Positions 15,388-43,716 of a stretch of DNA of 64,000 nt are shown one piece after another. The position numbers and the translations under genes are program-made. How positions within the stretch are numbered: position 1 is the stretch's first letter; each line of letters begins with the position of its first letter. Location of the stretch: NCBI RefSeq assembly GCF_000407185.1, contig NZ_KE136483.1:434001-498000 (forward strand), in the 5' to 3' direction. The notes below the pieces were generated by a model. That model searched no databases. It had not been told where the DNA came from and saw only the letters and a program-made list of their open reading frames with translations. Source of the DNA: Enterococcus malodoratus ATCC 43197 (GTDB lineage Bacteria; Bacillota; Bacilli; Lactobacillales; Enterococcaceae).

Positions 15388-15403
15388 TAGAGAGGGGAAA
15401 AAG

Positions 15404-18765: not shown

Positions 18766-18870
18766 AAGTTACTCGTTGATCGTTTGTTTGAAGGGAATGG
18801 CTCATTTGGTTATTGTGCCTCAGGTTAAGAGTAATTTATTGTTACGACAATATAAGTAAGGTGGAAAAAT

Positions 18871-19318: not shown

Positions 19319-20992
19319 CCTGAATAATTCATAGAATTTCTGAAACTCTATTAAAAGCTTATTAACGCACGGTTCTTCTTTTCTTTTACCGCACCCTTTG
19401 GGTGTACAAAAAGAACCCCAATCTGCTATGGTTAAAGTGTCTAAACTAAACCAAGAAAGGGGTTCTCTCAATGGCTACATTACAGGAAAAACACGTAAAA
19501 TTCAACTCTAAAATGGTGGTGTCAAACACCGGTGGTAATCTTTCGTCAGATGCCGGTCTCATCTTGGTGAAGGAATTCATGAATTCGCTTGGATTTTATT
19601 CGTTCGCGAAGCAATTCCTCCACTTCAATGAGGACCGTATTTATTGGACTCATGACAACATCTCCCTGCTCGAACAGCTGCTCTTCCAGTTGATTGCCGG
19701 ATATTCCGCAGATTCATCCGCCAATCTCTTGAAGGAAGATCCCATTTTTCGGTTGGTTTTGGATAAGGAAGCCATCGCCTCCCAGGCCTCGCTATCCCGC
19801 TTCTGGGACCGGATCAGCGAGGAGAACATTGCACAGTTCCAGGAACTGAACCAAGCCATGCTGGACAAGGTCCGCATGGAACGGAACAATACCCAAATGA
19901 TCATCGATTTAGATTCCACACATTCGGATACGTTCGGGAATCAAGAAAAGACTGAGCACAATGCCCATTACGGCACACAGGGCTATCATCCGTTGGTAGC
20001 CTTCGATGGCCTTACGGGAGACTTTCTGAAAGCAGAACTTCGTTCTGGAAATGTGTATACGTCAAAAGGTGTAAAAGATTTTCTGGCACCGATGCTCACA
20101 CATTACCGTCAAGTCCTTCCCTGCACTGATATTTTGGTCCGGGGAGACAGCGGCTTTGCGACGCCCGAGGTCTATGATACGTGTGAATCCAACGAAAGTT
20201 TCTATGTCATCCGCCTGAAATCAAATAAAGTCGTGGAAAAACTAGCGGAAACCTTTGTCCTGGTTGGGGACGACCATCCCTGGGAGGAAAGGGAAGTCCA
20301 CTACTATTCCGCGTTCTATCAAGCCAATAGCTGGTCCCAAAGACGTCGAATCTGTATCAAATCGACTCGGGAATCGAATCAGCTGGTGTTCAGTCACGAG
20401 TACGTGGTCACTAATTTTCACGAGGAACTATCCGCGAAAACCATCTTCCAGATTTACCATAAACGCGGCACCATGGAGAACTTCATCAAGGAAGCAAAAA
20501 ATGGGTTCTATTTCGACAAGACGGATAGCTCAAGCTTCTTGGAAAATCATGCACGGATGATGGTAAGCCTGTTGGCTTACAACCTGGTCAACTTCATGAA
20601 GACCATATGTCTACCTGAAAAGGAAGCGACATTCCAAGTCGACACATTGCGGCTCCGCCTGTTCAAGGTCGCGGGTAAATTAGTCCGCAGTGGCCGTAGA
20701 TTGCTTTTACGGATGAGCTCCTCCCATGTCTATCAAGACTTGTTTTATCAGTTACTGGACAAAATCCAGCAACTCAGTTGGCAAGTGTAAAATAGCAATC
20801 AGCTTTTAAAAAGACATGGAATCACTAAGGGATTCGTGCGCCCAAAAACAGCTCCAGATTCCCTATCTTCGTTAAAAAAACAAAAGGAAATCTGTTTTCG
20901 CAAGTACAAACCGGTTGAAAAAAGAAAATTCAACTCAAATCGATGTATAAACGTTATTTTCCCAAAAAAATTAGATCTATGAATTATTCAGG
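19319..20992 (+). mobile_element. IS1380-family element (IS1678-like), copy 1, no target duplication
   Basis: This 1674-bp element is bounded by inverted repeats CCTGAATAATTCATAGA and TCTATGAATTATTCAGG. Its flanks are GTTAC on the left and ATCAT on the right and do not match, unlike copy 4. It joins a truncated DUF624 gene to a GH32 gene that has lost its start. The most economical explanation is recombination between two direct IS copies that deleted what lay between. Confidence 0.92.
19471..20790 (+). CDS. IS1380-family transposase (copy 1)
   Basis: This 439-residue DDE transposase has DLDSTHSDTFG carrying the first acidic residue, LVRGDSGFATPE the second, and GTMENFIKEAKNG with the C-terminal Glu, which is the IS1380 pattern. 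It starts at ATG 19471 after AAGAAAGGGG. Together with copy 2 it has Arg in SQRRRIC (G at 20342), whereas copies 3 and 4 have Lys. It is intact and should be active. Confidence 0.92.
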   Translation: MATLQEKHVKFNSKMVVSNTGGNLSSDAGLILVKEFMNSLGFYSFAKQFLHFNEDRIYWTHDNISLLEQLLFQLIAGYSADSSANLLKEDPIFRLVLDKEAIASQASLSRFWDRISEENIAQFQELNQAMLDKVRMERNNTQMIIDLDSTHSDTFGNQEKTEHNAHYGTQGYHPLVAFDGLTGDFLKAELRSGNVYTSKGVKDFLAPMLTHYRQVLPCTDILVRGDSGFATPEVYDTCESNESFYVIRLKSNKVVEKLAETFVLVGDDHPWEEREVHYYSAFYQANSWSQRRRICIKSTRESNQLVFSHEYVVTNFHEELSAKTIFQIYHKRGTMENFIKEAKNGFYFDKTDSSSFLENHARMMVSLLAYNLVNFMKTICLPEKEATFQVDTLRLRLFKVAGKLVRSGRRLLLRMSSSHVYQDLFYQLLDKIQQLSWQV

Positions 20993-21069
20993 ATCATGAA
21001 AATGAGTTAAAAAAAGCAAATGACTATATTAAAGAGAACGGAGCAAGTGTACAGGGAAAAAAATCTAGA

Positions 21070-22446: not shown

Positions 22447-22450
22447 AAAT

Positions 22451-23314
22451 ATGGTTTTTGGTGCAATTGAAGCAGGTGGGACAAAGTTTGTTTGTGCTAT
22501 TGGAGATAAAAATCTAAACATTGAAAAACGAGCTAGTTTTCCTACAACTACTCCTGAAGAAACGATGAATCTGGTAATCGCCTTTTTTAATGATTATCAA
22601 ACAGAACTTGAGAGTATCGGTGTTGGCTCTTTTGGGCCAATTGATGTTCAACAAGATTCGTCGACCTATGGCTATATCACCTCTACTCCCAAATCAGGTT
22701 GGCAAGATTTTGATTTTGTAGGGAGTTTGAAGAAACACTTTGATGTTCCCGTTGCTTGGACTACAGATGTAAATGCTGCAGCATATGGGGAATATGTTTG
22801 CGGAGAGGGGCGAGGGAAAAATAGTGTTGTGTATTACACTATTGGAACTGGTATTGGTGGAGGAGCAATTCAAAAAGGAGAATTCATCGAGGGGTTTAGT
22901 CACCCTGAAATGGGCCATATGCTTGTAGTTCCACACGAAAGGGATTCTTTCCAAGGAAATTGTCCATTTCACAAAAATTGTTTAGAAGGAATGGCGGCTG
23001 GTCCAGCAATTGAAGCAAGAACAGGTCGAAAAGGGCAGGATATTTCTGAGACTGATACTGTTTGGGAAAGCGAGGCTTTTTACATTGCCCAATGCGTCTA
23101 CAATACTACACTGATACTCTCTCCTGATGTAATCATATTAGGTGGTGGTGTGATGCAGCAATCTCACATGGTAGAACGAGTTCGTGCAGCCTTTCATTCT
23201 TTAATGAAGAACTATGTAAGAACTCCAGAAATGAAAAATTATATTGTAACCCCTTCTCTGAAAAACAATGCAGGAGTCATTGGCTGTCTAGCATTAGCAA
23301 AGAAAGAAATCTAA
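22451..23314 (+). CDS. scrK: Fructokinase, ROK family
   Basis: This 287-residue ROK kinase begins with phosphate-binding GAIEAGGTKFVCAIG. It has TIGTGIGGGAI in the middle and the zinc-binding region HPEMGH...CPFHKNCLEGMAAG (His and three Cys) characteristic of ScrK/GmuE fructokinases. It starts at ATG 22451 five bases after the GH32 stop, with GGAGG overlapping that stop. It makes fructose-6-phosphate in the cytoplasm and is the last gene of the second fructoside cluster. Confidence 0.9.
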   Translation: MVFGAIEAGGTKFVCAIGDKNLNIEKRASFPTTTPEETMNLVIAFFNDYQTELESIGVGSFGPIDVQQDSSTYGYITSTPKSGWQDFDFVGSLKKHFDVPVAWTTDVNAAAYGEYVCGEGRGKNSVVYYTIGTGIGGGAIQKGEFIEGFSHPEMGHMLVVPHERDSFQGNCPFHKNCLEGMAAGPAIEARTGRKGQDISETDTVWESEAFYIAQCVYNTTLILSPDVIILGGGVMQQSHMVERVRAAFHSLMKNYVRTPEMKNYIVTPSLKNNAGVIGCLALAKKEI

Positions 23315-23414
23315 AATAATGAATTAGCTTATTAATAATTGTGCCTCAACGTTGTTGTGCGATCCTTGATCATATATATAAATGTAGTTCCTTTATTGGA
23401 AATGAGGAGTAAGA

Positions 23415-23469
23415 GTGATCAGAAAGTCCGTTTCGATATTTGAAAGAATCTCTAAAAATGAAAGAATAA
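23415..23469 (+). pseudogene. Small ORF, 5' part (18 codons), interrupted by IS copy 2
   Basis: GTG 23415 follows GGAG by five bases and reads MIRKSVSIFERISKNER up to the IS border. If everything between IS copies 2 and 3 and one copy of the AATAA duplication are removed, the frame continues without shift into 38391-38450 (IINYFKNIEAIEKELLNIQ, stop), giving 36 codons. Function is unknown. Its main value is evidence that 23469 and 38390 were once adjacent. Confidence 0.55.
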
Positions 23470-25143
23470 CCTGAATAATTCATAGATCTAATTTTTTTGG
23501 GAAAATAACGTTTATACATCGATTTGAGTTGAATTTTCTTTTTTCAACCGGTTTGTACTTGCGAAAACAGATTTCCTTTTGTTTTTTTAACGAAGATAGG
23601 GAATCTGGAGCTGTTTTTGGGCGCACGAATCCCTTAGTGATTCCATGTCTTTTTAAAAGCTGATTGCTATTTTACACTTGCCAACTGAGTTGCTGGATTT
23701 TGTCCAGTAACTGATAAAACAAGTCTTGATAGACATGGGAGGAGCTCATCCGTAAAAGCAATCTACGGCCACTGCGGACTAATTTACCCGCGACCTTGAA
23801 CAGGCGGAGCCGCAATGTGTCGACTTGGAATGTCGCTTCCTTTTCAGGTAGACATATGGTCTTCATGAAGTTGACCAGGTTGTAAGCCAACAGGCTTACC
23901 ATCATCCGTGCATGATTTTCCAAGAAGCTTGAGCTATCCGTCTTGTCGAAATAGAACCCATTTTTTGCTTCCTTGATGAAGTTCTCCATGGTGCCGCGTT
24001 TATGGTAAATCTGGAAGATGGTTTTCGCGGATAGTTCCTCGTGAAAATTAGTGACCACGTACTCGTGACTGAACACCAGCTGATTCGATTCCCGAGTCGA
24101 TTTGATACAGATTCGACGTCTTTGGGACCAGCTATTGGCTTGATAGAACGCGGAATAGTAGTGGACTTCCCTTTCCTCCCAGGGATGGTCGTCCCCAACC
24201 AGGACAAAGGTTTCCGCTAGTTTTTCCACGACTTTATTTGATTTCAGGCGGATGACATAGAAACTTTCGTTGGATTCACACGTATCATAGACCTCGGGCG
24301 TCGCAAAGCCGCTGTCTCCCCGGACCAAAATATCAGTGCAGGGAAGGACTTGACGGTAATGTGTGAGCATCGGTGCCAGAAAATCTTTTACACCTTTTGA
24401 CGTATACACATTTCCAGAACGAAGTTCTGCTTTCAGAAAGTCTCCCGTAAGGCCATCGAAGGCTACCAACGGATGATAGCCCTGTGTGCCGTAATGGGCA
24501 TTGTGCTCAGTCTTTTCTTGATTCCCGAACGTATCCGAATGTGTGGAATCTAAATCGATGATCATTTGGGTATTGTTCCGTTCCATGCGGACCTTGTCCA
24601 GCATGGCTTGGTTCAGTTCCTGGAACTGTGCAATGTTCTCCTCGCTGATCCGGTCCCAGAAGCGGGATAGCGAGGCCTGGGAGGCGATGGCTTCCTTATC
24701 CAAAACCAACCGAAAAATGGGATCTTCCTTCAAGAGATTGGCGGATGAATCTGCGGAATATCCGGCAATCAACTGGAAGAGCAGCTGTTCGAGCAGGGAG
24801 ATGTTGTCATGAGTCCAATAAATACGGTCCTCATTGAAGTGGAGGAATTGCTTCGCGAACGAATAAAATCCAAGCGAATTCATGAATTCCTTCACCAAGA
24901 TGAGACCGGCATCTGACGAAAGATTACCACCGGTGTTTGACACCACCATTTTAGAGTTGAATTTTACGTGTTTTTCCTGTAATGTAGCCATTGAGAGAAC
25001 CCCTTTCTTGGTTTAGTTTAGACACTTTAACCATAGCAGATTGGGGTTCTTTTTGTACACCCAAAGGGTGCGGTAAAAGAAAAGAAGAACCGTGCGTTAA
25101 TAAGCTTTTAATAGAGTTTCAGAAATTCTATGAATTATTCAGG
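23470..25143 (-). mobile_element. IS1380-family element (IS1678-like), copy 2, flanks swapped with copy 3
   Basis: This 1674-bp element has the same terminal repeats as copy 1. The left flank is AATAA (23465-23469) and the right flank TTTAT (25144-25148). Copy 3, in the same orientation, has TTTAT on its left and AATAA on its right, so each 5-bp duplication is split between the two copies. It carries the Arg variant (C at 24120 on the + strand). Confidence 0.93.
23672..24991 (-). CDS. IS1380-family transposase (copy 2)
   Basis: This 439-residue intact DDE transposase is identical in translation to that of copy 1, including SQRRRIC. DLDSTHSD, RGDSGFATPE and GTMENFIKEA carry the acidic residues. 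It is encoded on the minus strand with start at 24991 and AAAGGGG upstream. Confidence 0.92.
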   Translation of the reverse strand: MATLQEKHVKFNSKMVVSNTGGNLSSDAGLILVKEFMNSLGFYSFAKQFLHFNEDRIYWTHDNISLLEQLLFQLIAGYSADSSANLLKEDPIFRLVLDKEAIASQASLSRFWDRISEENIAQFQELNQAMLDKVRMERNNTQMIIDLDSTHSDTFGNQEKTEHNAHYGTQGYHPLVAFDGLTGDFLKAELRSGNVYTSKGVKDFLAPMLTHYRQVLPCTDILVRGDSGFATPEVYDTCESNESFYVIRLKSNKVVEKLAETFVLVGDDHPWEEREVHYYSAFYQANSWSQRRRICIKSTRESNQLVFSHEYVVTNFHEELSAKTIFQIYHKRGTMENFIKEAKNGFYFDKTDSSSFLENHARMMVSLLAYNLVNFMKTICLPEKEATFQVDTLRLRLFKVAGKLVRSGRRLLLRMSSSHVYQDLFYQLLDKIQQLSWQV

Positions 25144-25170
25144 TTTATAGATAACTATAAGCAAATGTGA

Positions 25171-25182
25171 TTAAACGTTTAA
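25171..25182. promoter_or_regulatory. Perfect palindrome TTAAACGTTTAA, candidate LacI-family operator
   Basis: A 12-bp perfect palindrome with the CG centre typical of LacI/GalR operators. It lies 164 bp upstream of the LacI-family gene at 25335. A related site, TAAAACGTTTAA, lies at 25302-25313, between the -10 box and that gene. The pair could support DNA looping and autoregulation. Confidence 0.65.
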
Positions 25183-25246
25183 CTTTATTTGAGTCCCTAT
25201 ATGAAAGGTTTTTAGTATAAGTATTCCAATTTTTTTAAAATAATTA

Positions 25247-25284
25247 TTGAAAACGTTGACATATTTTTTGCGTGGTGGTATTAT
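25247..25284 (+). promoter_or_regulatory. Sigma-A promoter with overlapping cre (CcpA) site, alpha-glucan operon
   Basis: TTGACA (25256-25261), a 17-bp spacer and TATTAT (25279-25284) form the promoter. TTGAAAACGTTGACA (25247-25261) matches the CcpA cre consensus WTGWAARCGYWWWCW at 14 of 15 positions and covers the -35 box, predicting glucose repression. The operator-like TAAAACGTTTAA at 25302-25313 lies just downstream of the start point. Confidence 0.78.
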
Positions 25285-25334
25285 TCATTTGTTGAGTTAA
25301 GTAAAACGTTTAACGTATTTCTGGGGAGAAAAGA

Positions 25335-26342
25335 ATGAAAAAAATAACTATCAAAGATATTGCAAGAGAAGCAGGTGTGAGCATAGCAACTGTTTCAAAT
25401 GTTATGAACAACAAACCAAATCGAGTTTCGGAAAAGAAAAAAAGAGAAATTCGTAAAGTAATGGATAAATATAATTATGCTCCTAATTTAAATGCTCGCT
25501 CTTTAGTTGCCCAAGAATCAAAAATGATTGGTATCTTATATTACTCTACAAAAGATGAAATTGATTTTGGCGATCCCTTTATTTCGGATTTGATGACTGG
25601 ACTTGAATTCGAAGCAAAGAAACTTGGTATGTTTATTATGTTCCATGGATTTAATGAATTGAAGGATATAGATGTATTACAACGAAATTGGAATTTTGAT
25701 GGCTTTATTGTTGTAGGGGCATTTGAACATATCATTACTGAGCTGATCGATAAAATTAGTAAACCAATTATTTTTATTGATAGTTATTATAATATTCCTA
25801 TCACAAGATCAAATATTGTTTTTGTAAATAATGATGATAGGGAGCTTAGTTACACTGCAACTAAATTACTATTAGAACATGGTCATCGTCAAATTGCTTT
25901 TTTTAGTCCGAAGTTTTCATTGAATGATGACGGGGTTGTGCCTCAGAGGTATCTTGGATATGTTGATGCACTTGTAGAATACGGTTTAAAACTAGATGAA
26001 AAGCTCTTGTTTTCCGAGGATAAGTTAGAGAACTTTGTTTCAGAAAAACAAAGTTATACCGCCTCAGTAATTAACTCAGATTATCTGGCAGCACAATATA
26101 TTCATAGGTTGCGTGATTGTAAATTGAAATTTAAATCTTTGGTAAGTTTTGACAATAATATATTTGCTAAATTATTAGATCCTTCCTTGTCTACAGTTGA
26201 TCTTAGACAGAAAGAAAAAGGTAAGATTTCTGTTAGTAAAATAAATACAATGTTGCGAAATCCGGATCAAACGGTAGACAGTCATTTCCTAGTTGAAGGG
26301 GAATTAATCAAACGTAAGTCGGTTTTAGAAAGGACAGAATAG
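25335..26342 (+). CDS. LacI-family repressor of the alpha-glucan operon
   Basis: This 335-residue protein has an N-terminal HTH ITIKDIAREAGVSIATVSNV (3-22) with hinge KPNRVSEKKKREI, and a periplasmic-binding-like effector domain from about residue 60 (KMIGILYYSTKD onward). It is followed within four bases by the GH31 gene, so repressor and enzymes are co-transcribed. AAACGTTT-type palindromes flank its promoter. The effector is probably an alpha-glucoside produced from the imported substrate. Confidence 0.9.
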   Translation: MKKITIKDIAREAGVSIATVSNVMNNKPNRVSEKKKREIRKVMDKYNYAPNLNARSLVAQESKMIGILYYSTKDEIDFGDPFISDLMTGLEFEAKKLGMFIMFHGFNELKDIDVLQRNWNFDGFIVVGAFEHIITELIDKISKPIIFIDSYYNIPITRSNIVFVNNDDRELSYTATKLLLEHGHRQIAFFSPKFSLNDDGVVPQRYLGYVDALVEYGLKLDEKLLFSEDKLENFVSEKQSYTASVINSDYLAAQYIHRLRDCKLKFKSLVSFDNNIFAKLLDPSLSTVDLRQKEKGKISVSKINTMLRNPDQTVDSHFLVEGELIKRKSVLERTE

Positions 26343-26345
26343 AGA

Positions 26346-28613
26346 ATGGTAAAGGCATCAAGCAAAAACAAAATCATGGGGGATAATTATCGTTTCACAT
26401 TATTAACCCCGTGTTTAATACGAATGGAATACTCAAAATCAGGATGTTTTATAAATCAAAAAACACAAGTAGTGCTGGACAGAAATTTTCCTGAATTCGA
26501 ATTTGATTTTGTCGAATCGGAAAATTCCCTTGAAATCTATACAGACTATTTTCATCTAAGTTATGATAAGCAAGAGTTTACAAGTCAAGGGCTGACCATA
26601 GATATGAAATCAAATTTCACTGATTATAATAATAAATGGTTTTATGGTGAAGTAGTTGATACGCTAAAAGGTACAACTCGCACACTTGATAATATTAATG
26701 GAAGTACTGACTTAGATGAAGGAATAATTTCTGAGCAAGGATATGCAGTTCTCGACGATTCCAATTCGTTCATTGTAGCGGAAGATGGGAAAGCTATTCC
26801 GAGGACGGATAACGATGTTGACATTTATTTTTTTGGGTATCAGCATCAGTACAAAAATGCCTTACATGACTTTTATAAACTAACAGGACCAACTCCTGTA
26901 ATACCAAGATATGCTCTAGGAAATTGGTGGAGCCGTTTTTGGGCATATACGGATGAATCCTACTTGGCTTTAATGGACAGATTTAAAAGTGAGGAAATCC
27001 CTCTTGCAGTTAGTGTGCTGGATATGGATTGGCATATTCGAGATGTACCGGAGCGATTTGGCAGCGAGTGGACGGGCTACTCCTGGAATAAAAACCTTTT
27101 TCCAGAACCAGAAAAGTTTTTAGAACAGCTTCATAATAGAGGATTGAAAATTACCTTAAATGTCCATCCAGCAGATGGTATTCGTGCATTTGAGGACTGT
27201 TATCCAGCTGTTTCTAAACGTTTAAAGTTAAACGTTTTACTTGAAGAACCAGCGGAATTTGATATGACTGACGATTCGTTTGTAGAAAGTTACTTTGTCG
27301 ATGTGCATCACCCTCTAGAGGATCAAGGAGTAGATTTTTGGTGGATTGATTGGCAACAAGGAAATCAAAGCAAGGAAAATGGATTAGACCCATTGTGGCT
27401 CTTGAATCAATATCATTTTGAGGATATTGCTGAGCGTAAAGATGGTTTGATTCTTTCAAGATATGCAGGACCGGGAAGTCATCGATATCCTATTGGTTTT
27501 TCTGGGGATACGATTATTAGTTGGGAGTCACTACAGTTTCAGCCCTATTTTACCTCTACAGCTTCGAATATTGGGTACACGTGGTGGAGTCATGATATTG
27601 GTGGACATATGAAGGGTATACGTAATGATGAATTAACTCTGCGATGGATGCAATTTGGAACATTCAGTCCCATTAATCGATTACACAGTTCTTCTAGTCC
27701 TTTTAATAGTAAAGAGCCTTGGAACTTTTCTGGCGAAATTTTTCTCTCAATGAAAGAAGCTCTTAGAGAACGGCATCGTTTGTTGCCATATTTGTATACT
27801 GCGAATATTGAAACTCATGAAAATGGTGATGCTCTAATTAGGCCGCTTTATTACGAATATCCTGAAGAAACCCAAGCCTATGAATATCAAAATCAATACT
27901 TTTTTGGTAGTCAATTATTAGTGGTTCCAATTGTTCACGAAACGAGTAAAACATATAAATTTGCCAAAGAAGATATTTGGTTGCCAGAAGGAAACTGGTA
28001 TGACTATCATACTGGCCGACGATATGAAGGGAATACGGAATTAAGTATTTTCCGCAAAATTAATGAAACTGCAGTTTTTGCAAAATCAGGTGCTATCATT
28101 CCTACTGATTTAAAAATTATGGAAACAAATCCTGATGGTCTCCCTGAGGTACTTAATTGGAAAGTATTTCCTGGTGCAAATAATACTTTTGAAATGGTTG
28201 AAGAAGTAAAAGGAAGGAGATGTATAACAAAGCTAATTCTTGATTGGAATAATAGAAAGATTTTGATTGAAAGCAGTGGAGAAAAAGAGATTTTACCAGC
28301 AAACCGTCAACATAAAATTACATTGTACTGTGTAGAAAATCAAGATGGATCAAAATTGGCAAATGATATGTTTTGTGTTGAAATCAGTGATCAGGTTCAC
28401 TTACCAGTCAATGAAGTTGATAAACAGTCAATGGACGAAATGATTTTTGAACGGATTGATTTACCAGATATTTCTTATGATGTAAAAAATCAGCTTTGGG
28501 AAAGTCTGAATCGGGAGTCAATATTTGCGAAGAAAATTAATTCAGTAAAGAAATTCAAGGATAGTATGCTTACTGACATGTTATTCGAAGTTTTTTATAT
28601 TGAAGAAAGTTGA
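26346..28613 (+). CDS. GH31 family alpha-glucosidase (755 aa)
   Basis: The N-terminal beta-sandwich (about 10-180) is followed by the GH31 barrel. DFWWIDWQQGN carries the nucleophile Asp335, and GFSGDTIISWESLQ the acid/base Asp388. RYALGNWWSRFWAYTDESY is the conserved barrel entry. No signal peptide is present, so it is cytoplasmic. It corresponds in size and position to Listeria Lmo0182-type enzymes, but here lies before the permeases. The start at 26346 has only a weak AAAGGA site four bases behind the repressor stop, hence probable coupling. Linkage specificity cannot be read from sequence alone. Confidence 0.88.
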   Translation: MVKASSKNKIMGDNYRFTLLTPCLIRMEYSKSGCFINQKTQVVLDRNFPEFEFDFVESENSLEIYTDYFHLSYDKQEFTSQGLTIDMKSNFTDYNNKWFYGEVVDTLKGTTRTLDNINGSTDLDEGIISEQGYAVLDDSNSFIVAEDGKAIPRTDNDVDIYFFGYQHQYKNALHDFYKLTGPTPVIPRYALGNWWSRFWAYTDESYLALMDRFKSEEIPLAVSVLDMDWHIRDVPERFGSEWTGYSWNKNLFPEPEKFLEQLHNRGLKITLNVHPADGIRAFEDCYPAVSKRLKLNVLLEEPAEFDMTDDSFVESYFVDVHHPLEDQGVDFWWIDWQQGNQSKENGLDPLWLLNQYHFEDIAERKDGLILSRYAGPGSHRYPIGFSGDTIISWESLQFQPYFTSTASNIGYTWWSHDIGGHMKGIRNDELTLRWMQFGTFSPINRLHSSSSPFNSKEPWNFSGEIFLSMKEALRERHRLLPYLYTANIETHENGDALIRPLYYEYPEETQAYEYQNQYFFGSQLLVVPIVHETSKTYKFAKEDIWLPEGNWYDYHTGRRYEGNTELSIFRKINETAVFAKSGAIIPTDLKIMETNPDGLPEVLNWKVFPGANNTFEMVEEVKGRRCITKLILDWNNRKILIESSGEKEILPANRQHKITLYCVENQDGSKLANDMFCVEISDQVHLPVNEVDKQSMDEMIFERIDLPDISYDVKNQLWESLNRESIFAKKINSVKKFKDSMLTDMLFEVFYIEES
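27215..27239. promoter_or_regulatory. Two tandem LacI-type palindromes inside the GH31 coding region
   Basis: TAAACGTTTAA (27215-27225) and TTAAACGTTTTA (27228-27239) lie with centres 14 bp apart within codons for SKRLKLNVL. They share the AAACGTTT core of the operators at 25171 and 25302. They may be auxiliary operators about 1.9 kb downstream of the promoter; chance in AT-rich coding DNA is possible. Confidence 0.4.
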
Positions 28614-28625
28614 GGAGGAGTACAA

Positions 28626-29498
28626 ATGATTGGCTCTAAGAAAAACAATGCTTTGTGGATTTGCTTATTCTTATTACCCAGTTTGATAGGTTTTTTGACC
28701 TTTATTATTTACCCAGTTTTCTACTCATTGGGTGTAAGTTTTACGGAGTGGGATTTAATTAATCCGATAAAATTTATCGGATTAAAAAATTATCAATCGT
28801 TGTTAAAAGATGCAAATTTTTGGAACTCTTTAAAAAACACATTTATATTTATTATCGGATATTTACCATCGGTGATGATAATTGGTTTACTAGTGGCGCT
28901 GCTTCTTAATAGTAAAATTCGCTTGAAGCCAGTATTCAGGGGAATCTATTTTCTCCCTGTGGTCACTTCTTGGGTGGCAGTTTCACTGGTTTGGAAATGG
29001 TTATTTAATCCAAAGTTTGGTCTAATCAATTATTTCCTGTCACTTATCAGTGTTCATGGTCCTAACTGGTTAAATGATCCCAAGACAGCCATGTTAGCCA
29101 TCATCATTACAAGTGTCTGGAAAGATATTGGTTTTATCATGGTACTTTATCTAGGTGGTTTACAGAATATTTCACCATCTTTATATGAAGCCGCGAGTAT
29201 AGACGGTGCAGATAATTGGCATCAGTTTTGGAAGATTACACTTCCAATGTTAAAACCAACTACTTTCTTTGTTTCAATGATTTCCTTGATTAATTCTTTC
29301 CAAGTGTTTGATCAGGTGAATATCATGACAGAAGGTGGACCTGGAGACTCAACTACAGTATTGGTTCAAAATATTTATAATTCAGCATTCAAATATTCCG
29401 AAATGGGATATGCTGCAGCAATGTCTTGGGTATTATTTGCAATAATTTTAGTTGTTTCTCTTGTGCAAATGTGGGGCGAAAGGAAGATGACAAAATGA
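28626..29498 (+). CDS. Alpha-glucan ABC transporter permease, MalF type
   Basis: This 290-residue permease has six predicted membrane segments, the first beginning near residue 10 (LWICLFLLPSLIGFLTFII), and the EAA loop EAASIDGADNWHQFWKITLP near residue 195. GAGGAGG lies upstream of ATG 28626. Its stop overlaps the start of the next permease (ATGA). No ATPase gene lies in this operon, so one of the two MsmK proteins (5183, 17656) probably energises it. Confidence 0.9.
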   Translation: MIGSKKNNALWICLFLLPSLIGFLTFIIYPVFYSLGVSFTEWDLINPIKFIGLKNYQSLLKDANFWNSLKNTFIFIIGYLPSVMIIGLLVALLLNSKIRLKPVFRGIYFLPVVTSWVAVSLVWKWLFNPKFGLINYFLSLISVHGPNWLNDPKTAMLAIIITSVWKDIGFIMVLYLGGLQNISPSLYEAASIDGADNWHQFWKITLPMLKPTTFFVSMISLINSFQVFDQVNIMTEGGPGDSTTVLVQNIYNSAFKYSEMGYAAAMSWVLFAIILVVSLVQMWGERKMTK

Positions 29499-30319
29499 AA
29501 AAAATTAATTTAATTACAGTTTTAAAATACCTTGTCATTCTTTTAGGTTGTGTGATCATGGTAATGCCCTTCTTGTGGATGGTTTCTACCTCGCTTAAAG
29601 AGCGTGGCGCGACAATGGTTTTCCCACCAGAGTTTTTACCAAAAAATCCTAAAATTGATAATTATCAGCAAGTCATTGAGCGTTTTCCAATGATGACATT
29701 TATGAAAAATTCGATTATTGTTTCTCTGTTAACTACTGTTGGAACAATTGTAGTTTCATCCATGGCAGCTTATGCCTTTGCACGTATGCGTTTTAAAGGC
29801 CGTAATGCATTATTTCTAATATATTTAAGTACTATGATGATCCCATCTCAGGTAATAATGATTCCACAATTTATCTTATTGAAAAATTTAGGTTGGATAG
29901 ATAGCTTTCAAGGACTAATTTTGCCGAATATATTTGGAGTTTTTGGCGTTTTCTTAATGAGGCAATCCTTTTTGACAATTCCTACTGAATTGGAAGAAGC
30001 TGCCTATATGGATGGGGCCAATCATTGGACAGTCTTTACTAAAGTTGATTTACCTCTAGTGAAGCCTACGATTGCAACGTTGTTTATTTTTACTTTTATG
30101 CAATCATGGAACAATTATTTATGGCCACTCATTGTGACGAGTAGCCGTGAAATGGCCACTTTGCCATTAGGTCTGTCTTTATTGCAAGGTCGATGGAGTA
30201 CTAACTGGAACTTAGTAATGGCTGGTGTCGTTATTAGTGTTATACCGATTTTAGCAGTTTACTTGTTTGCTCAGAAATATTTCATTCAAGGCATGACCAT
30301 GAGTGGAATGAAAGAATAA
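29495..30319 (+). CDS. Alpha-glucan ABC transporter permease, MalG type
   Basis: This 274-residue permease starts at ATG 29495, which overlaps the upstream stop (ATGA) after AAAGGAAG; an in-frame ATG at 29426 lies inside the previous gene and is rejected. It contains the motif EEAAYMDGANHWTVFTKVDL and six hydrophobic segments, ending FIQGMTMSGMKE as many MalG proteins do. It forms the heterodimeric channel with the protein at 28626. Confidence 0.9.
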   Translation: MKKINLITVLKYLVILLGCVIMVMPFLWMVSTSLKERGATMVFPPEFLPKNPKIDNYQQVIERFPMMTFMKNSIIVSLLTTVGTIVVSSMAAYAFARMRFKGRNALFLIYLSTMMIPSQVIMIPQFILLKNLGWIDSFQGLILPNIFGVFGVFLMRQSFLTIPTELEEAAYMDGANHWTVFTKVDLPLVKPTIATLFIFTFMQSWNNYLWPLIVTSSREMATLPLGLSLLQGRWSTNWNLVMAGVVISVIPILAVYLFAQKYFIQGMTMSGMKE

Positions 30320-30339
30320 TAAAAATGGGGGAAAGAAAA

Positions 30340-31590
30340 ATGATGAAAAAAGTTTTATTAACAGGTGTAGCAGCAACGGCAATGTTACTTTTGGGGGCGT
30401 GTGGAGGAGGAGGTAGTTCTTCAACCAATGAAGATCAAACAACAATTAAGTATTACAGTTTTTCTGCTACTCCGGATTATGAAGATCAACTGAACGAAAT
30501 GGTTGAGAGTTTCGAACAAGAAAATGAAGATATCAAAGTTGATGTGGAGCTTGTTCCGTTTAATGATTATTTTACAAAGCTACAAACCTTAATGGCTGGA
30601 GATCAAGCTCCAGATGTCTTTGAGTTAAATTATGAAAATTTTGTTTCATATGCTGAAAAAGGTGCATTGTTAGAGCTTGGTAAATACATCGATGAGGACA
30701 AAGACTTTGATTCTTCACAATTAAATAAAGAAGCGTTTGAAGCTTATCAATATGATGGAAAACAATATGGTATGGTTGAAAGTTTCTCAAATGTTGTAAC
30801 TTTCTATAATAAGGATTTATTTGATGAAGCGGGGATTGATTATCCAACAAAAGACTGGAGTTGGTCTGATGAGGTTGATGCTGCTAAAAAATTAACTGAT
30901 GCAGACAATAATATCTATGGTACTTATTCACCTGTTACGATGAATGAGTTTTATAAAGTTGCGGCTCAAAATGGTGGAAAACTAAAAGATGACAGCGGGA
31001 ATTGGACAATCAATGATCCAAAGAATGTTGAAGCATTAGAATACATGGTAAATAATGTAACTAAAGATAAAGTTTCGCCTTCCCCAGAAGAAATGTCAGG
31101 ACAAAATTCAGAAGATCTGTTCTTAAATGGTCAACTTGCTATGGTACACACCGGAATTTGGATGTTCGGTCAATTTAAAGATGCTGATTTTGATTGGGAC
31201 ATTCAAGTTGAAGCAGGAAATACTCAAAAGGCGACCCACTTCTTTGCAAATGGTTTGGCAGTCTCCAAAGAAACAAAACATGCTGAAGCTGCATACAAAT
31301 TTACTCGTTTTATGAGTGCTAGCAAAGATGTTGCAGAAATTCGAGTAGATAGTGGTTGGGAGCTTCCAGCAGTTACTGATGATGAAGTATTGGCTCCATA
31401 TTTGGAACAAACCCCTCCGGAAAATCGTAAAGCGGTCTTTGATTCACTTGATTACTTGATTTTACCTCCAGTTGATGCTGAGTGGAGTAAGGTCAGTGAT
31501 AGTTCAGATAAAGAATTCCAGAAAGTTTTACTAGGTGATGAATCAGCTAAAGATGCTTTAGATAATCTTCAATCTGAGTTTGGTGAATAA
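30340..31590 (+). CDS. Alpha-glucan ABC transporter substrate-binding lipoprotein
   Basis: This 416-residue extracellular solute-binding protein starts at ATG 30340 after GGGGGAAAG. The signal is MMKKVLLTGVAATAMLLL with lipobox LGAC, followed by a Gly/Ser-rich linker. The remainder has the two-lobed binding fold signatures of sugar-binding proteins (NDYFTKLQTLMAGDQAPDVF). By gene order it matches Lmo0181 of Listeria, reported to bind cycloalternan. Substrate is inferred. A stem-loop just after the gene may raise its mRNA level over downstream genes. Confidence 0.9.
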   Translation: MMKKVLLTGVAATAMLLLGACGGGGSSSTNEDQTTIKYYSFSATPDYEDQLNEMVESFEQENEDIKVDVELVPFNDYFTKLQTLMAGDQAPDVFELNYENFVSYAEKGALLELGKYIDEDKDFDSSQLNKEAFEAYQYDGKQYGMVESFSNVVTFYNKDLFDEAGIDYPTKDWSWSDEVDAAKKLTDADNNIYGTYSPVTMNEFYKVAAQNGGKLKDDSGNWTINDPKNVEALEYMVNNVTKDKVSPSPEEMSGQNSEDLFLNGQLAMVHTGIWMFGQFKDADFDWDIQVEAGNTQKATHFFANGLAVSKETKHAEAAYKFTRFMSASKDVAEIRVDSGWELPAVTDDEVLAPYLEQTPPENRKAVFDSLDYLILPPVDAEWSKVSDSSDKEFQKVLLGDESAKDALDNLQSEFGE

Positions 31591-31601
31591 TAATAACGAA
31601 C

Positions 31602-31643
31602 AGGTCTGGGACAAGGATAGCTTACTTAATTTGTTCCAGACCT
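31602..31643 (+). other. Intercistronic stem-loop after the binding protein gene
   Basis: AGGTCTGGGACAA (31602-31614) pairs with TTGTTCCAGACCT (31631-31643) with one G-T wobble. The tail ATATTTA is weak, so it is probably a partial terminator or mRNA stabiliser. Confidence 0.6.
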
Positions 31644-31665
31644 ATATTTAGGAAAGGGATTACTT

Positions 31666-36458
<4,793 letters not shown>

Positions 36459-36500
36459 AACATTAGTTTTGCATTTTTAGTATGAAAAAAGAGATGTTTG

Positions 36501-36560
36501 TACCGGCCTCCAAAGCTTAGAAAAAAATCTAACTTCTAACTTTAGTGGTCGGTATATTTT
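36501..36560 (+). terminator. Probable terminator of the alpha-glucan operon
   Basis: TACCGGCCTCCAAAG (from 36501) and CTTTAGTGGTCGGTA form a long imperfect hairpin ending in ATTTTTC. The remaining sequence to 36715 shows no gene. Confidence 0.5.
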
Positions 36561-36715
36561 TCATCTTTCGTTTTTATAGATGCTATTCTAAGTAGTCGAT
36601 AATTCATTAGTGGGGATTTGGCAGTAGAAACTGTTAATGAAGAGGTATTTGTGAAAATTGCTTACTAGTTTCGTAATGAAGTTGTGACATAAATACTACT
36701 TGAAATATAGTTTAT

Positions 36716-38389
36716 CCTGAATAATTCATAGATCTAATTTTTTTGGGAAAATAACGTTTATACATCGATTTGAGTTGAATTTTCTTTTTTCAACCGGTTT
36801 GTACTTGCGAAAACAGATTTCCTTTTGTTTTTTTAACGAAGATAGGGAATCTGGAGCTGTTTTTGGGCGCACGAATCCCTTAGTGATTCCATGTCTTTTT
36901 AAAAGCTGATTGCTATTTTACACTTGCCAACTGAGTTGCTGGATTTTGTCCAGTAACTGATAAAACAAGTCTTGATAGACATGGGAGGAGCTCATCCGTA
37001 AAAGCAATCTACGGCCACTGCGGACTAATTTACCCGCGACCTTGAACAGGCGGAGCCGCAATGTGTCGACTTGGAATGTCGCTTCCTTTTCAGGTAGACA
37101 TATGGTCTTCATGAAGTTGACCAGGTTGTAAGCCAACAGGCTTACCATCATCCGTGCATGATTTTCCAAGAAGCTTGAGCTATCCGTCTTGTCGAAATAG
37201 AACCCATTTTTTGCTTCCTTGATGAAGTTCTCCATGGTGCCGCGTTTATGGTAAATCTGGAAGATGGTTTTCGCGGATAGTTCCTCGTGAAAATTAGTGA
37301 CCACGTACTCGTGACTGAACACCAGCTGATTCGATTCCCGAGTCGATTTGATACAGATTCGACGTTTTTGGGACCAGCTATTGGCTTGATAGAACGCGGA
37401 ATAGTAGTGGACTTCCCTTTCCTCCCAGGGATGGTCGTCCCCAACCAGGACAAAGGTTTCCGCTAGTTTTTCCACGACTTTATTTGATTTCAGGCGGATG
37501 ACATAGAAACTTTCGTTGGATTCACACGTATCATAGACCTCGGGCGTCGCAAAGCCGCTGTCTCCCCGGACCAAAATATCAGTGCAGGGAAGGACTTGAC
37601 GGTAATGTGTGAGCATCGGTGCCAGAAAATCTTTTACACCTTTTGACGTATACACATTTCCAGAACGAAGTTCTGCTTTCAGAAAGTCTCCCGTAAGGCC
37701 ATCGAAGGCTACCAACGGATGATAGCCCTGTGTGCCGTAATGGGCATTGTGCTCAGTCTTTTCTTGATTCCCGAACGTATCCGAATGTGTGGAATCTAAA
37801 TCGATGATCATTTGGGTATTGTTCCGTTCCATGCGGACCTTGTCCAGCATGGCTTGGTTCAGTTCCTGGAACTGTGCAATGTTCTCCTCGCTGATCCGGT
37901 CCCAGAAGCGGGATAGCGAGGCCTGGGAGGCGATGGCTTCCTTATCCAAAACCAACCGAAAAATGGGATCTTCCTTCAAGAGATTGGCGGATGAATCTGC
38001 GGAATATCCGGCAATCAACTGGAAGAGCAGCTGTTCGAGCAGGGAGATGTTGTCATGAGTCCAATAAATACGGTCCTCATTGAAGTGGAGGAATTGCTTC
38101 GCGAACGAATAAAATCCAAGCGAATTCATGAATTCCTTCACCAAGATGAGACCGGCATCTGACGAAAGATTACCACCGGTGTTTGACACCACCATTTTAG
38201 AGTTGAATTTTACGTGTTTTTCCTGTAATGTAGCCATTGAGAGAACCCCTTTCTTGGTTTAGTTTAGACACTTTAACCATAGCAGATTGGGGTTCTTTTT
38301 GTACACCCAAAGGGTGCGGTAAAAGAAAAGAAGAACCGTGCGTTAATAAGCTTTTAATAGAGTTTCAGAAATTCTATGAATTATTCAGG
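36716..38389 (-). mobile_element. IS1380-family element (IS1678-like), copy 3, flanks swapped with copy 2
   Basis: This 1674-bp element has left flank TTTAT (36711-36715) and right flank AATAA (38390-38394), the mirror arrangement of copy 2. It carries T at 37366, giving Lys in SQKRRIC, the variant shared with copy 4. It lies 257 bases after the GH13 stop codon. Confidence 0.93.
36918..38237 (-). CDS. IS1380-family transposase (copy 3)
   Basis: This 439-residue intact transposase differs from copies 1 and 2 by a single Arg-to-Lys change (SQKRRIC). The acidic motifs DLDSTHSD, RGDSGFATPE and GTMENFIKEA are unchanged. It is on the minus strand, as in copy 2. Confidence 0.92.
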   Translation of the reverse strand: MATLQEKHVKFNSKMVVSNTGGNLSSDAGLILVKEFMNSLGFYSFAKQFLHFNEDRIYWTHDNISLLEQLLFQLIAGYSADSSANLLKEDPIFRLVLDKEAIASQASLSRFWDRISEENIAQFQELNQAMLDKVRMERNNTQMIIDLDSTHSDTFGNQEKTEHNAHYGTQGYHPLVAFDGLTGDFLKAELRSGNVYTSKGVKDFLAPMLTHYRQVLPCTDILVRGDSGFATPEVYDTCESNESFYVIRLKSNKVVEKLAETFVLVGDDHPWEEREVHYYSAFYQANSWSQKRRICIKSTRESNQLVFSHEYVVTNFHEELSAKTIFQIYHKRGTMENFIKEAKNGFYFDKTDSSSFLENHARMMVSLLAYNLVNFMKTICLPEKEATFQVDTLRLRLFKVAGKLVRSGRRLLLRMSSSHVYQDLFYQLLDKIQQLSWQV

Positions 38390-38390
38390 A

Positions 38391-38450
38391 ATAATAAACT
38401 ATTTTAAGAATATAGAAGCAATCGAAAAAGAATTATTAAATATTCAGTAA
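38391..38450 (+). pseudogene. Small ORF, 3' part (19 codons and stop), right of IS copy 3
   Basis: Open from the IS edge, it reads IINYFKNIEAIEKELLNIQ and stops at TAA 38448-38450. It is in frame with the 5' part at 23415 once the insertion is removed. Function unknown. Confidence 0.5.
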
Positions 38451-38594: not shown

Positions 38595-38798
38595 ATGTTT
38601 ATTTATGAAGATAAAAATGTGCTTTATCAACTAGTGCAAGAAATAGTATCAGAAAGGTGGGAACTATCCAAACAATATTTTGATATAAAAATGAGAATGG
38701 AGAAACTTGAGAAAGATGGGGATAGATTTGCTCAAATTAAAGAAGTAAGGCTATGCGCATTGGAAAATGAAAAGGTTCAATATCAGAATTATTCCTGA
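38595..38798 (+). pseudogene. Mobile-element accessory gene, 5' part, interrupted by IS copy 4
   Basis: It starts at ATG 38595 and reads MFIYEDKNVLYQLVQEIVSE. Native codons end at 38793; the frame then runs two codons into the IS. It has a charged, helical, coiled-coil-like character (KMRMEKLEKDGD). Joined across the IS it would encode 157 residues. It lies just upstream of the sigma-like, HTH, xis and int genes of the recombination module. No family is recognised. Confidence 0.6.
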
Positions 38799-40467
38799 AT
38801 AATTCATAGAATTTCTGAAACTCTATTAAAAGCTTATTAACGCACGGTTCTTCTTTTCTTTTACCGCACCCTTTGGGTGTACAAAAAGAACCCCAATCTG
38901 CTATGGTTAAAGTGTCTAAACTAAACCAAGAAAGGGGTTCTCTCAATGGCTACATTACAGGAAAAACACGTAAAATTCAACTCTAAAATGGTGGTGTCAA
39001 ACACCGGTGGTAATCTTTCGTCAGATGCCGGTCTCATCTTGGTGAAGGAATTCATGAATTCGCTTGGATTTTATTCGTTCGCGAAGCAATTCCTCCACTT
39101 CAATGAGGACCGTATTTATTGGACTCATGACAACATCTCCCTGCTCGAACAGCTGCTCTTCCAGTTGATTGCCGGATATTCCGCAGATTCATCCGCCAAT
39201 CTCTTGAAGGAAGATCCCATTTTTCGGTTGGTTTTGGATAAGGAAGCCATCGCCTCCCAGGCCTCGCTATCCCGCTTCTGGGACCGGATCAGCGAGGAGA
39301 ACATTGCACAGTTCCAGGAACTGAACCAAGCCATGCTGGACAAGGTCCGCATGGAACGGAACAATACCCAAATGATCATCGATTTAGATTCCACACATTC
39401 GGATACGTTCGGGAATCAAGAAAAGACTGAGCACAATGCCCATTACGGCACACAGGGCTATCATCCGTTGGTAGCCTTCGATGGCCTTACGGGAGACTTT
39501 CTGAAAGCAGAACTTCGTTCTGGAAATGTGTATACGTCAAAAGGTGTAAAAGATTTTCTGGCACCGATGCTCACACATTACCGTCAAGTCCTTCCCTGCA
39601 CTGATATTTTGGTCCGGGGAGACAGCGGCTTTGCGACGCCCGAGGTCTATGATACGTGTGAATCCAACGAAAGTTTCTATGTCATCCGCCTGAAATCAAA
39701 TAAAGTCGTGGAAAAACTAGCGGAAACCTTTGTCCTGGTTGGGGACGACCATCCCTGGGAGGAAAGGGAAGTCCACTACTATTCCGCGTTCTATCAAGCC
39801 AATAGCTGGTCCCAAAAACGTCGAATCTGTATCAAATCGACTCGGGAATCGAATCAGCTGGTGTTCAGTCACGAGTACGTGGTCACTAATTTTCACGAGG
39901 AACTATCCGCGAAAACCATCTTCCAGATTTACCATAAACGCGGCACCATGGAGAACTTCATCAAGGAAGCAAAAAATGGGTTCTATTTCGACAAGACGGA
40001 TAGCTCAAGCTTCTTGGAAAATCATGCACGGATGATGGTAAGCCTGTTGGCTTACAACCTGGTCAACTTCATGAAGACCATATGTCTACCTGAAAAGGAA
40101 GCGACATTCCAAGTCGACACATTGCGGCTCCGCCTGTTCAAGGTCGCGGGTAAATTAGTCCGCAGTGGCCGTAGATTGCTTTTACGGATGAGCTCCTCCC
40201 ATGTCTATCAAGACTTGTTTTATCAGTTACTGGACAAAATCCAGCAACTCAGTTGGCAAGTGTAAAATAGCAATCAGCTTTTAAAAAGACATGGAATCAC
40301 TAAGGGATTCGTGCGCCCAAAAACAGCTCCAGATTCCCTATCTTCGTTAAAAAAACAAAAGGAAATCTGTTTTCGCAAGTACAAACCGGTTGAAAAAAGA
40401 AAATTCAACTCAAATCGATGTATAAACGTTATTTTCCCAAAAAAATTAGATCTATGAATTATTCAGG
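38794..40467 (+). mobile_element. IS1380-family element (IS1678-like), copy 4, with intact 5-bp target duplication
   Basis: This 1674-bp element has TTATT on both sides (38789-38793 and 40468-40472), proving that simple transposition here makes 5-bp duplications. It carries the Lys variant (A at 39817), like copy 3. It disrupts a 157-codon gene in a clean, reconstructable way. Confidence 0.95.
38946..40265 (+). CDS. IS1380-family transposase (copy 4)
   Basis: This 439-residue intact DDE transposase is identical in translation to copy 3 (SQKRRIC). It starts at ATG 38946 after AAGAAAGGGG, with the same internal motifs as the other copies. Because this copy is a recent, unrearranged insertion, it shows the ancestral structure of the element. 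Confidence 0.92.
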   Translation: MATLQEKHVKFNSKMVVSNTGGNLSSDAGLILVKEFMNSLGFYSFAKQFLHFNEDRIYWTHDNISLLEQLLFQLIAGYSADSSANLLKEDPIFRLVLDKEAIASQASLSRFWDRISEENIAQFQELNQAMLDKVRMERNNTQMIIDLDSTHSDTFGNQEKTEHNAHYGTQGYHPLVAFDGLTGDFLKAELRSGNVYTSKGVKDFLAPMLTHYRQVLPCTDILVRGDSGFATPEVYDTCESNESFYVIRLKSNKVVEKLAETFVLVGDDHPWEEREVHYYSAFYQANSWSQKRRICIKSTRESNQLVFSHEYVVTNFHEELSAKTIFQIYHKRGTMENFIKEAKNGFYFDKTDSSSFLENHARMMVSLLAYNLVNFMKTICLPEKEATFQVDTLRLRLFKVAGKLVRSGRRLLLRMSSSHVYQDLFYQLLDKIQQLSWQV

Positions 40468-43564: not shown

Positions 43565-43580
43565 GAATTTGAAAAAAAGA

Positions 43581-43716
43581 GTGTTAGCAAAAGTGTTAGC
43601 AGAAACGAGGTTTTTTGATGATTTTTCGAGAAAATAAAAAATCTGTTAGCAGATTTCGAGGTCAACTAACAGATCATTTTGAGACAAGTGGTAGCAAAAA
43701 TTTCCTCTTGCTAACT
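43581..43716. repeat. GTTAGCA repeats, candidate integrase arm-binding sites
   Basis: GTGTTAGCA occurs at 43581-43589 and 43593-43601, CTGTTAGCA at 43643-43651, and inverted TGCTAAC at 43709-43715. A 9-bp stem (ATCTGTTAG 43641-43649 with CTAACAGAT 43666-43674) lies among them. Between int and the tRNA this is where an attR arm region is expected. Confidence 0.55.

What the first reader, a model, noticed from the sequence alone, without database searches (positions are those of the whole stretch)
23465..38394. Alpha-glucan operon entered as a circle by recombination between IS copies (swapped 5-bp duplications)
IS copies 2 and 3 lie in the same orientation. Copy 2 is flanked AATAA / TTTAT and copy 3 TTTAT / AATAA. 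Pairing the outer flanks gives AATAA-IS-AATAA, and pairing the inner flanks gives TTTAT-IS-TTTAT. Each is a proper 5-bp duplication like the intact TTATT pair of copy 4. This is what results when a circle of about 13.2 kb (25144-36715 plus one IS) recombines with a resident IS copy. The circle carries a repressor, two GH31 enzymes, an ABC importer and a GH13 enzyme but no replication gene, so it behaves like a translocatable unit for carbohydrate use rather than resistance. It also implies that the ends of the operon segment were once joined directly.
Basis: partly seen in the sequence, partly recalled or inferred. Interest (0 to 1): 0.85.

Follow-up and report, generated by a model that had tools for sequence, protein, structure and literature searches.

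The report
IS-flanked sugar operon shared between genera
A sugar-eating operon boxed in by two copies of a jumping gene sits at a spot where the nearest relative examined has nothing, and a nearly identical copy with the same jumping-gene ends lies in a different genus, so it looks like a mobile package that probably once existed as a DNA circle.

Summary
Two direct copies of an IS1380-family element (23470-25143, 36716-38389) bound an 11,572-bp operon and are flanked AATAA/TTTAT and TTTAT/AATAA. Nine of the genome's 12 full copies have ordinary 5-bp duplications. A sister species (about 98% identical on either side) holds the empty site: 23469 joined to 38395, AATAA unduplicated, no IS. So the outer pair is a true target duplication. 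The operon occurs at 99.9% identity (11 differences) in Bavariicoccus seileri, with ends of the same IS (94-95 bp visible) and the same TTTAT junctions; there it seems to be cargo of a Tn916-like conjugative element. "Entered as a circle" is only partly supported. The inner TTTAT pair belongs to the mobile unit in both hosts. It suggests that the operon's ends were once joined around one IS (chance roughly 1-2%) but does not show how the unit entered this chromosome: circle integration and transposition of IS-operon-IS leave the same marks. A long-resident IS is not supported: of 104 other family genomes none gave a match better than about 74%. The enzymes point to alpha-1,3/alpha-1,6-gluco-oligosaccharides. 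A good new example of a known kind.

The parts
23465..23469 (+). AATAA, left outer target duplication; not duplicated in sister species G002
23470..25143 (+). IS1380-family insertion sequence, copy 2 (1,674 bp, 17-bp terminal inverted repeats CCTGAATAATTCATAGA); transposase on the - strand 23672-24991
   Evidence: NCBIfam NF033539, 395 bits vs cut-off 180; Pfam PF13701; ends
25144..25148 (+). TTTAT, left inner junction of the operon segment; same in B. seileri
25149..25334 (+). upstream region: promoter-like TTGACA-17-TATTAT (25256-25284) and three AACGTT sites (25173, 25251, 25304); two such sites also upstream of the E. phoeniculicola operon
   Evidence: 1 promoter-like site found, 1.6 expected in shuffles, so no more than chance by count; no chance control made
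25335..26342 (+). LacI-family repressor
   Evidence: Pfam PF00356
26346..28613 (+). GH31 enzyme, closest solved relative the alpha-1,3-glucosidase LlGH31_u1 (7WJ9)
   Evidence: 803 bits over 6-751 of 755 aa; PMC9061262 passages
28626..29498 (+). ABC sugar importer permease 1
   Evidence: family hits below curated cut-offs
29426..30319 (+). ABC sugar importer permease 2
   Evidence: below curated cut-offs
30325..31590 (+). ABC sugar importer substrate-binding protein
   Evidence: below curated cut-offs
31666..34827 (+). large GH31 enzyme, nearest in the PDB to cycloalternan-forming/degrading enzymes
   Evidence: best PDB hits Lmo2446 / cycloalternan-forming enzyme, N-terminal part matches Lmo0182; 44.4% identical to a Listeria enzyme over 97%
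34818..36458 (+). GH13 glucan-1,6-alpha-glucosidase type enzyme
   Evidence: 829 bits to 4AIE
36711..36715 (+). TTTAT, right inner junction; same in B. seileri
36716..38389 (+). IS1380-family insertion sequence, copy 3 (differs from copy 2 only at IS position 651)
38390..38394 (+). AATAA, right outer target duplication
19319..20992 (-). IS copy 1, no duplication (GTTAC/ATCAT); stands where the sister species has 5,884 bp more; shares C at IS position 651 with copy 2 only
38794..40467 (-). IS copy 4, simple insertion with TTATT duplication; empty in the sister species

Best explanation
The segment is an IS1380-bounded mobile unit carrying an operon (LacI-type repressor, ABC importer without an ATPase gene, two GH31 and one GH13 enzyme) predicted to serve alpha-1,3/alpha-1,6-linked gluco-oligosaccharides such as nigero-oligosaccharides or cycloalternan. 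Steps shown: it is absent from the same site of a sister species, it is bounded by direct IS copies with a true 5-bp target duplication outside, and the same segment with the same IS junctions occurs in B. seileri. Steps inferred: (1) in a common source the ends of the operon were contiguous, most likely on a small circle, and one IS inserted there, duplicating TTTAT; (2) the one-IS circle was turned into IS-operon-IS by recombination with another IS copy or by replicative (cointegrate) transposition; (3) the unit spread on conjugative elements, as its apparent place in B. seileri suggests; (4) it entered this chromosome at AATAA after the split from the sister species, by transposition of the whole composite or by integration of the one-IS circle; (5) the IS multiplied to 12 copies, and a deletion arose at copy 1.
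For: Flank letters and 9 of 12 normal duplications. Empty site in G002 with AATAA unduplicated. 11 differences in 11,572 bases with B. seileri; its contig begins and ends with 94 and 95 bp of the IS, identical to the window's, with TTTAT at both junctions. Chance of the inner match about 0.008, or 0.022 by observed pairs. Polarised with the 74%-identical E. phoeniculicola operon as the single outgroup, the 11 differences are 4 changed in B. seileri, 2 in the window, 5 undecided, so neither genome is simply the other's donor; all 7 genes are open in both. The B. seileri IS differs from every window copy at 4 positions; at the operon's rate 1.6 would be expected, P = 0.08 for 4 or more, so joint travel is not excluded. 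B. seileri flanking contigs: TcpC, TcpF (1,535 bits), MobT relaxase on one; integrase and a sigma-like gene on the other.
Against: No circle and no IS-free joined-ends sequence was found (0 in viral contigs; no other collection was scanned for it). The inner match could be chance at about 1-2%. B. seileri outer flanks do not match each other (ATAAA / TATTA), so its copy has been rearranged or is not what the simple model predicts. The B. seileri segment is not joined to its neighbours in the assembly, so its place in the conjugative element is inferred, not seen. The sugar is predicted from similarity only.
Confidence: 0.72

Rival explanations
1. Ordinary composite transposon: two IS copies inserted independently on either side of the operon in a donor, the whole IS-operon-IS then transposed into AATAA; the inner TTTAT match is coincidence and no circle ever existed.
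For: Explains the outer duplication and the empty site and the shared junctions in B. seileri; needs no circle; composite transposons are classical (recalled).
Against: The inner match has a chance of about 0.008 to 0.022 under the targets seen here (only 10 targets).
Confidence: 0.17
2. The first reader's version in full (a special case of the best explanation): a circle of operon plus one IS recombined with an IS copy already resident at AATAA in this chromosome.
For: Predicts all four flanks; copies 2 and 3 differ at position 651 (C vs T), as two separately evolved copies could.
Against: The inner pair is already in B. seileri, so the structure need not have formed here. No near-identical IS in the sister species or the other family genomes. 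C at position 651 is shared with nearby copy 1 only, which one mutation plus one copying step explains as well.
Confidence: 0.35
3. Replicative cointegrate (a special case of the best explanation): a one-IS circle attacked AATAA directly, giving two IS copies in direct repeat, target duplication outside, old duplication inside.
For: Gives exactly the observed flanks without a resident IS; a review reports hybridisation patterns pointing to a replicative mechanism for the IS1380 member ISPme1 (PMC9330008, passages).
Against: The same review says the exact pathway of these elements is not known; no cointegrate was observed here.
Confidence: 0.25
4. Assembly artefact: the assembler placed a separate operon circle (or another locus) at a simple AATAA-IS-AATAA insertion.
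For: Both junctions run through a 1.67-kb repeat present 12 times.
Against: 4.6 Mb in 5 contigs, with 9 of 12 copies showing perfect duplications. Reads and assembly method were not available. If true it would itself imply a free circle or another locus.
Confidence: 0.04
5. One-ended IS1380 mobilisation (ISEcp1-like transposable module): one IS carried the operon along by using a surrogate end.
For: Known for this IS family (PMC9330008, PMC3281130, passages).
Against: Two complete IS copies bound the unit in the window, with the duplication outside both; IS ends are on both sides in B. seileri too.
Confidence: 0.03

Closest known systems
Pseudo-compound transposons and translocatable units of the IS6/IS26/IS1216 family (e.g. 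Tn7086 of E. faecalis, PMC13055272; review PMC7986276; passages of both)
   Same: Cargo between directly repeated IS copies; a circle with one IS copy explains the flanks; target duplication reported for some insertions
   Different: IS is of the IS1380 family, not IS6; cargo is sugar catabolism, not resistance; circles not observed here
Classical composite transposons, including catabolic ones linked to IS1071 (recalled; PMC7039861 seen only in a search listing with the start of its abstract)
   Same: Two IS copies move catabolic genes between genera
   Different: Matching inner duplications, which independent IS insertions should not give
IS1380-family transposable modules (ISEcp1, ISPme1; PMC9330008, PMC3281130, passages)
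   Same: Same IS family, moves neighbouring genes; 5-bp direct repeats listed for IS1247 in PMC3281130
   Different: Here two full IS copies, not one IS with a surrogate end
Listeria monocytogenes locus with ROK regulator, ABC importer, two GH31 and a GH13 enzyme (L098; lmo0178-lmo0184 by recall)
   Same: Same importer and enzyme set; large GH31 44.4% identical over 97%
   Different: Different repressor family and gene order; in the stretch shown the nearest IS-family genes lie about 4.7 kb before the repressor genes and do not flank the operon
E. phoeniculicola operon (L030)
   Same: Seven genes of matching size in the same order, about 69-75% DNA identity in the aligned stretches
   Different: On a 764-kb contig; no match to this IS in the 23-kb locus

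Membership tests
IS1380 family | Transposase of the family | tested here: met
   NF033539 395 bits, cut-off 180
IS1380 family | Terminal inverted repeats and short (4-5 bp, recalled) target duplication | tested here: met
   17-bp perfect ends; 5-bp duplication in 9 of 12 copies
Composite / pseudo-compound transposon (structure) | Two IS copies bounding cargo, target duplication outside, empty site elsewhere | tested here: met
Composite / pseudo-compound transposon (structure) | Unit found at more than one location | tested here: met
   B. seileri copy; the contigs that carry the IS there do not match the window outside the IS
IS6-type pseudo-compound transposon | IS of the IS6 family | tested here: not met
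   IS1380-family transposase
Translocatable unit (works like) | Circular form with one IS copy | not testable with these tools
   No reads; B. seileri contigs allow a circle but do not require it
Translocatable unit (works like) | Inner flanks of the two IS copies form one duplication | tested here: met
   TTTAT/TTTAT in both hosts; chance about 0.008-0.022
IS1380 transposable module (one-ended) | Single IS plus neighbouring DNA inside one duplication | tested here: not met
   Two full IS copies
Tn916-like ICE as carrier in B. seileri (type and gene order by recall) | MobT relaxase, TcpC, TcpF ATPase, integrase on the flanking contigs | tested here: met
Tn916-like ICE as carrier in B. seileri (type and gene order by recall) | Operon contiguous with those contigs | tested here: inconclusive
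   Contigs meet only in the IS repeat; outer flanks ATAAA and TATTA do not match
Cycloalternan / nigero-oligosaccharide utilisation operon | GH31 alpha-1,3-glucosidase, cycloalternan-type GH31, 1,6-glucosidase, ABC importer | tested here: met
   by sequence similarity only
Cycloalternan / nigero-oligosaccharide utilisation operon | Growth on or cleavage of the sugar | not testable with these tools
   needs assay

The most novel reading that the evidence does not exclude
IS1380-family elements can run the same circle-and-cointegrate cycle known from IS26/IS1216: a one-IS circle carrying a whole sugar operon integrates at new sites, giving nested duplications, and conjugative elements carry the result between genera, so 'translocatable units' would not be a peculiarity of the IS6 family or of resistance genes.
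Probability: 0.3. Interest if true: 0.65.

Novelty: new member of a known kind. Interest (0 to 1): 0.48.

Why it matters
It is a natural case in which target duplications, an exact empty site and a second host together document the movement of a whole catabolic operon between genera. It gives a testable claim about how IS1380 elements, a family that also mobilises resistance genes (ISEcp1; PMC9330008, passages), move DNA. It shows that nested duplications record the history of a mobile unit and not necessarily its last jump.

Tried and rejected
Joined operon ends as a recombinase site: the joined junction holds a 7-bp inverted repeat with a 7-bp spacer spanning TTTAT, but random joins of AT-rich sites give as much in 3.0% of 20,000 trials, and 2.2% of 1,264 native sites do, so I do not use it. 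Terminator at the operon's end: none found by the scan. Inversion between copies 1 and 2: worked out by hand from the flanks; it restores no duplication, and 20993-23469 is collinear with the sister species. Operon on a plasmid: no megablast match in 72,556 plasmid records; the large GH31 as protein had 206 records, all under 60% identity. The phage and E. coli collections were not searched. Further hosts: among 105 family genomes (window's included; E 1e-30; 2 candidates scored per genome) no other matched the segment above about 75%; among 395 genomes of the order (query IS plus repressor and first GH31; E 1e-150; 2 candidates scored per genome) only the window's genome and B. seileri matched the operon part. 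Intact WYL gene in B. seileri to pair with the truncated one: no PF13280 match in 6 candidates. IS tips on B. seileri contigs C64 and C81 appear to belong to a different, related IS. Viral contigs with the exact IS end: 0. att repeat of the tRNA next to the window's integrase: no other copy of 14 bp or more in the window. Literature: searches on IS1380 + cointegrate, IS1380 + translocatable unit, cycloalternan + transposon, Bavariicoccus seileri, and cheese + transfer terms listed no paper whose title or opening abstract describes this unit; lists were partly capped and this is not proof of absence.
Full report
WHAT IS THERE. The window lies in a 4.62-Mb genome in 5 contigs (G000, contig C3, 434001-498000). 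It holds four copies of a 1,674-bp insertion sequence with 17-bp perfect inverted ends and a 439-aa IS1380-family transposase. The genome has 12 full copies and one 64-bp remnant. I fetched the eight full copies outside the window and compared all 12. Nine have an exact 5-bp target duplication. The three that do not are copy 1 (19319-20992; GTTAC/ATCAT), copy 2 (23470-25143; AATAA/TTTAT) and copy 3 (36716-38389; TTTAT/AATAA). Copies 2 and 3 therefore do show the swapped pattern reported, and it is unusual for this genome.

THE EMPTY SITE. Of 20 genomes of the genus searched (the window's included), G002 is about 98% identical to the window over 13600-19318 and 20993-23469. It gave no IS match at E 1e-100, with 3 of 28 candidate places scored. 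Its sequence runs without a break from the base matching 23469 to that matching 38395, with AATAA not duplicated, and it also lacks copy 4. Over the roughly 540 bases compared it equals the window with the inserts taken out, apart from a 22-bp gap and one substitution. So AATAA outside copies 2 and 3 is a true target duplication, made after the two species parted.

COPY 1 IS A DELETION. Between the bases that flank copy 1, G002 carries 5,884 bp more. This holds five ORFs of 278-448 aa; one resembles a carbohydrate substrate-binding protein, below the family cut-off, and one other tested had no family match. The DUF624 gene that copy 1 cuts short in the window (150 aa) is a 188-aa frame in G002. 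Loss of this stretch in the window lineage would explain why copy 1 has no duplication; whether by recombination of two IS copies or during transposition cannot be told, and gain in G002 was not formally excluded.

THE SECOND HOST. The one scan of named genomes allowed, with the large GH31 enzyme as query, returned 7 loci. One, contig NZ_ATXL01000054 of Bavariicoccus seileri DSM 19936, equals the window from 25050 to 36810 with 11 differences in 11,761 bases, all of them within the 11,572-bp segment. Its first 94 and last 95 bases are ends of the same IS, and TTTAT stands at both inner junctions. All seven genes are open in both hosts. With E. phoeniculicola as the only outgroup, 4 differences changed on the B. 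seileri side, 2 on the window side, and 5 are undecided (28955 matched neither; four positions did not align). B. seileri lies in another family of the same order in the grouping used by the genome search (G281, which holds the same contigs, f4 versus f1), while NCBI lists it under Enterococcaceae. It was found on a surface-ripened cheese in one study (PMC3621994, passages).

B. SEILERI CONTEXT. At near identity this IS lies on three contigs only: C54 (the segment), C20 and C62. C20 meets the IS at a short WCX-domain frame, followed by genes for TcpC, a lysozyme/NlpC protein, the TcpF ATPase and a MobT relaxase. C62 meets it at an MFS transporter gene that appears cut short, followed by a sigma-like gene (below cut-off) and a tyrosine integrase. 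By recall of the Tn916 layout, these look like the two sides of a Tn916-like conjugative element with the operon as cargo; transfer genes, operon and integrase would read in one direction. Because the contigs meet only within the repeat, an alternative is C20-IS-C62 plus a free circle of operon and IS; the assembly cannot choose. The outer flanks there (ATAAA and TATTA) do not match each other, against the simplest expectation; a deletion like that at copy 1 is one possible reason. The window genome has two related conjugative elements (85-90% identical pieces), and none of its 12 IS copies lies in them.

WHERE THE IS COMES FROM. In 105 family genomes it occurs at near identity only in the window's; three others have relatives at 73-74% (best 3 candidates scored per genome). 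Of 395 genomes drawn from the order (best 2 candidates scored), B. seileri and one genome of a third family (G141, two copies, each with its own 5-bp duplication) have it at over 99%; other listed matches ranged from about 70% to 98%, the 98% one covering under half the IS. A Carnobacterium maltaromaticum plasmid has it at 97.5%. B. seileri's IS differs from all window copies at four positions. So the IS seems to have come into this lineage recently and may have come with the operon, which weakens the picture of a long-resident IS waiting for a circle.

HOW IT WORKS. Matching duplications outside and inside two direct IS copies arise when a circle that carries one IS joins a target, either by recombination with an IS already at that target or by replicative transposition. 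Once IS-operon-IS exists, its transposition as a unit carries the inner pair along unchanged and makes a new outer pair. The inner TTTAT pair is present in both hosts, so it dates from before their copies parted and says nothing on the last step here. What it does say is that the operon's two ends were probably once contiguous, since independent insertions would match in about 0.8% of cases by position frequencies, or 2.2% by observed pairs (ten targets, so a rough figure). I put about 0.8 on a circle or joined-ends stage at some time. For the entry into this chromosome I put about 0.6 on circle integration by one of its two routes and about 0.35 on whole-composite transposition.

WHAT IT CARRIES. 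Before the repressor gene stand a promoter-like site, no more than shuffles give by count (1 found, 1.6 expected), and three AACGTT sites, of which two have counterparts before the E. phoeniculicola operon. So the unit may bring its own control region; this is not tested. The first GH31 enzyme matches LlGH31_u1 of Lactococcus (7WJ9, 803 bits), described as an alpha-1,3-glucosidase specific for nigero-oligosaccharides, in a cluster with ABC and LacI genes (PMC9061262, passages). The large GH31 is nearest to cycloalternan-forming and -degrading enzymes. The GH13 matches glucan 1,6-alpha-glucosidases; its NCBIfam hits also include alpha,alpha-phosphotrehalase, above the cut-off of one subfamily model, which I take as general GH13 likeness. 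A Listeria locus has the same importer and enzyme set. No importer ATPase gene is among the seven ORFs; a shared cellular ATPase would have to serve (inference). The sugar is a prediction.

VERDICT. Observation confirmed; interpretation partly supported and corrected. It is a well-documented new member of the IS-bounded mobile units, with an unusual IS family and cargo.

Noticed in passing
48425-50483: IS21-family element (IstA/IstB), at least 2.06 kb, with 12 further near-identical places listed in the genome (15 of 123 candidates scored) and one at 100% in congener G018: a second recently expanded IS.
   Followed up: partly
42125-43832: Tyrosine integrase next to a tRNA gene (43759-43832, -). 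Matches in several congeners (e.g. G007, G009, G015, G016) begin at 43859, just beyond the tRNA, so the DNA to its left looks like a tRNA-integrated island, shared with sister species G002. No second att copy of 14 bp or more in the window.
   Followed up: partly
19319-20992: IS copy 1 stands where the sister species has 5,884 bp more, with five ORFs including one like a sugar-binding protein.
   Followed up: partly
IS position 651 in copies 1 and 2 (19319-20992, 23470-25143): Copies 1 and 2 alone share C; the other 10 full copies, B. seileri and G141 have T: copying or gene conversion between neighbours 2.5 kb apart.
   Followed up: partly
L118:2027-3709: Frame resembling retron-type reverse transcriptases (below family cut-offs) between the transfer genes and ffh on the B. 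seileri contig.
   Followed up: no
36700-36715 joined to 25149-25166: Joined operon ends would form TATAGTT-7-AACTATA; about 3% by chance.
   Followed up: yes
46342-46413: Ribosomal protein L21 leader RNA.
   Followed up: no
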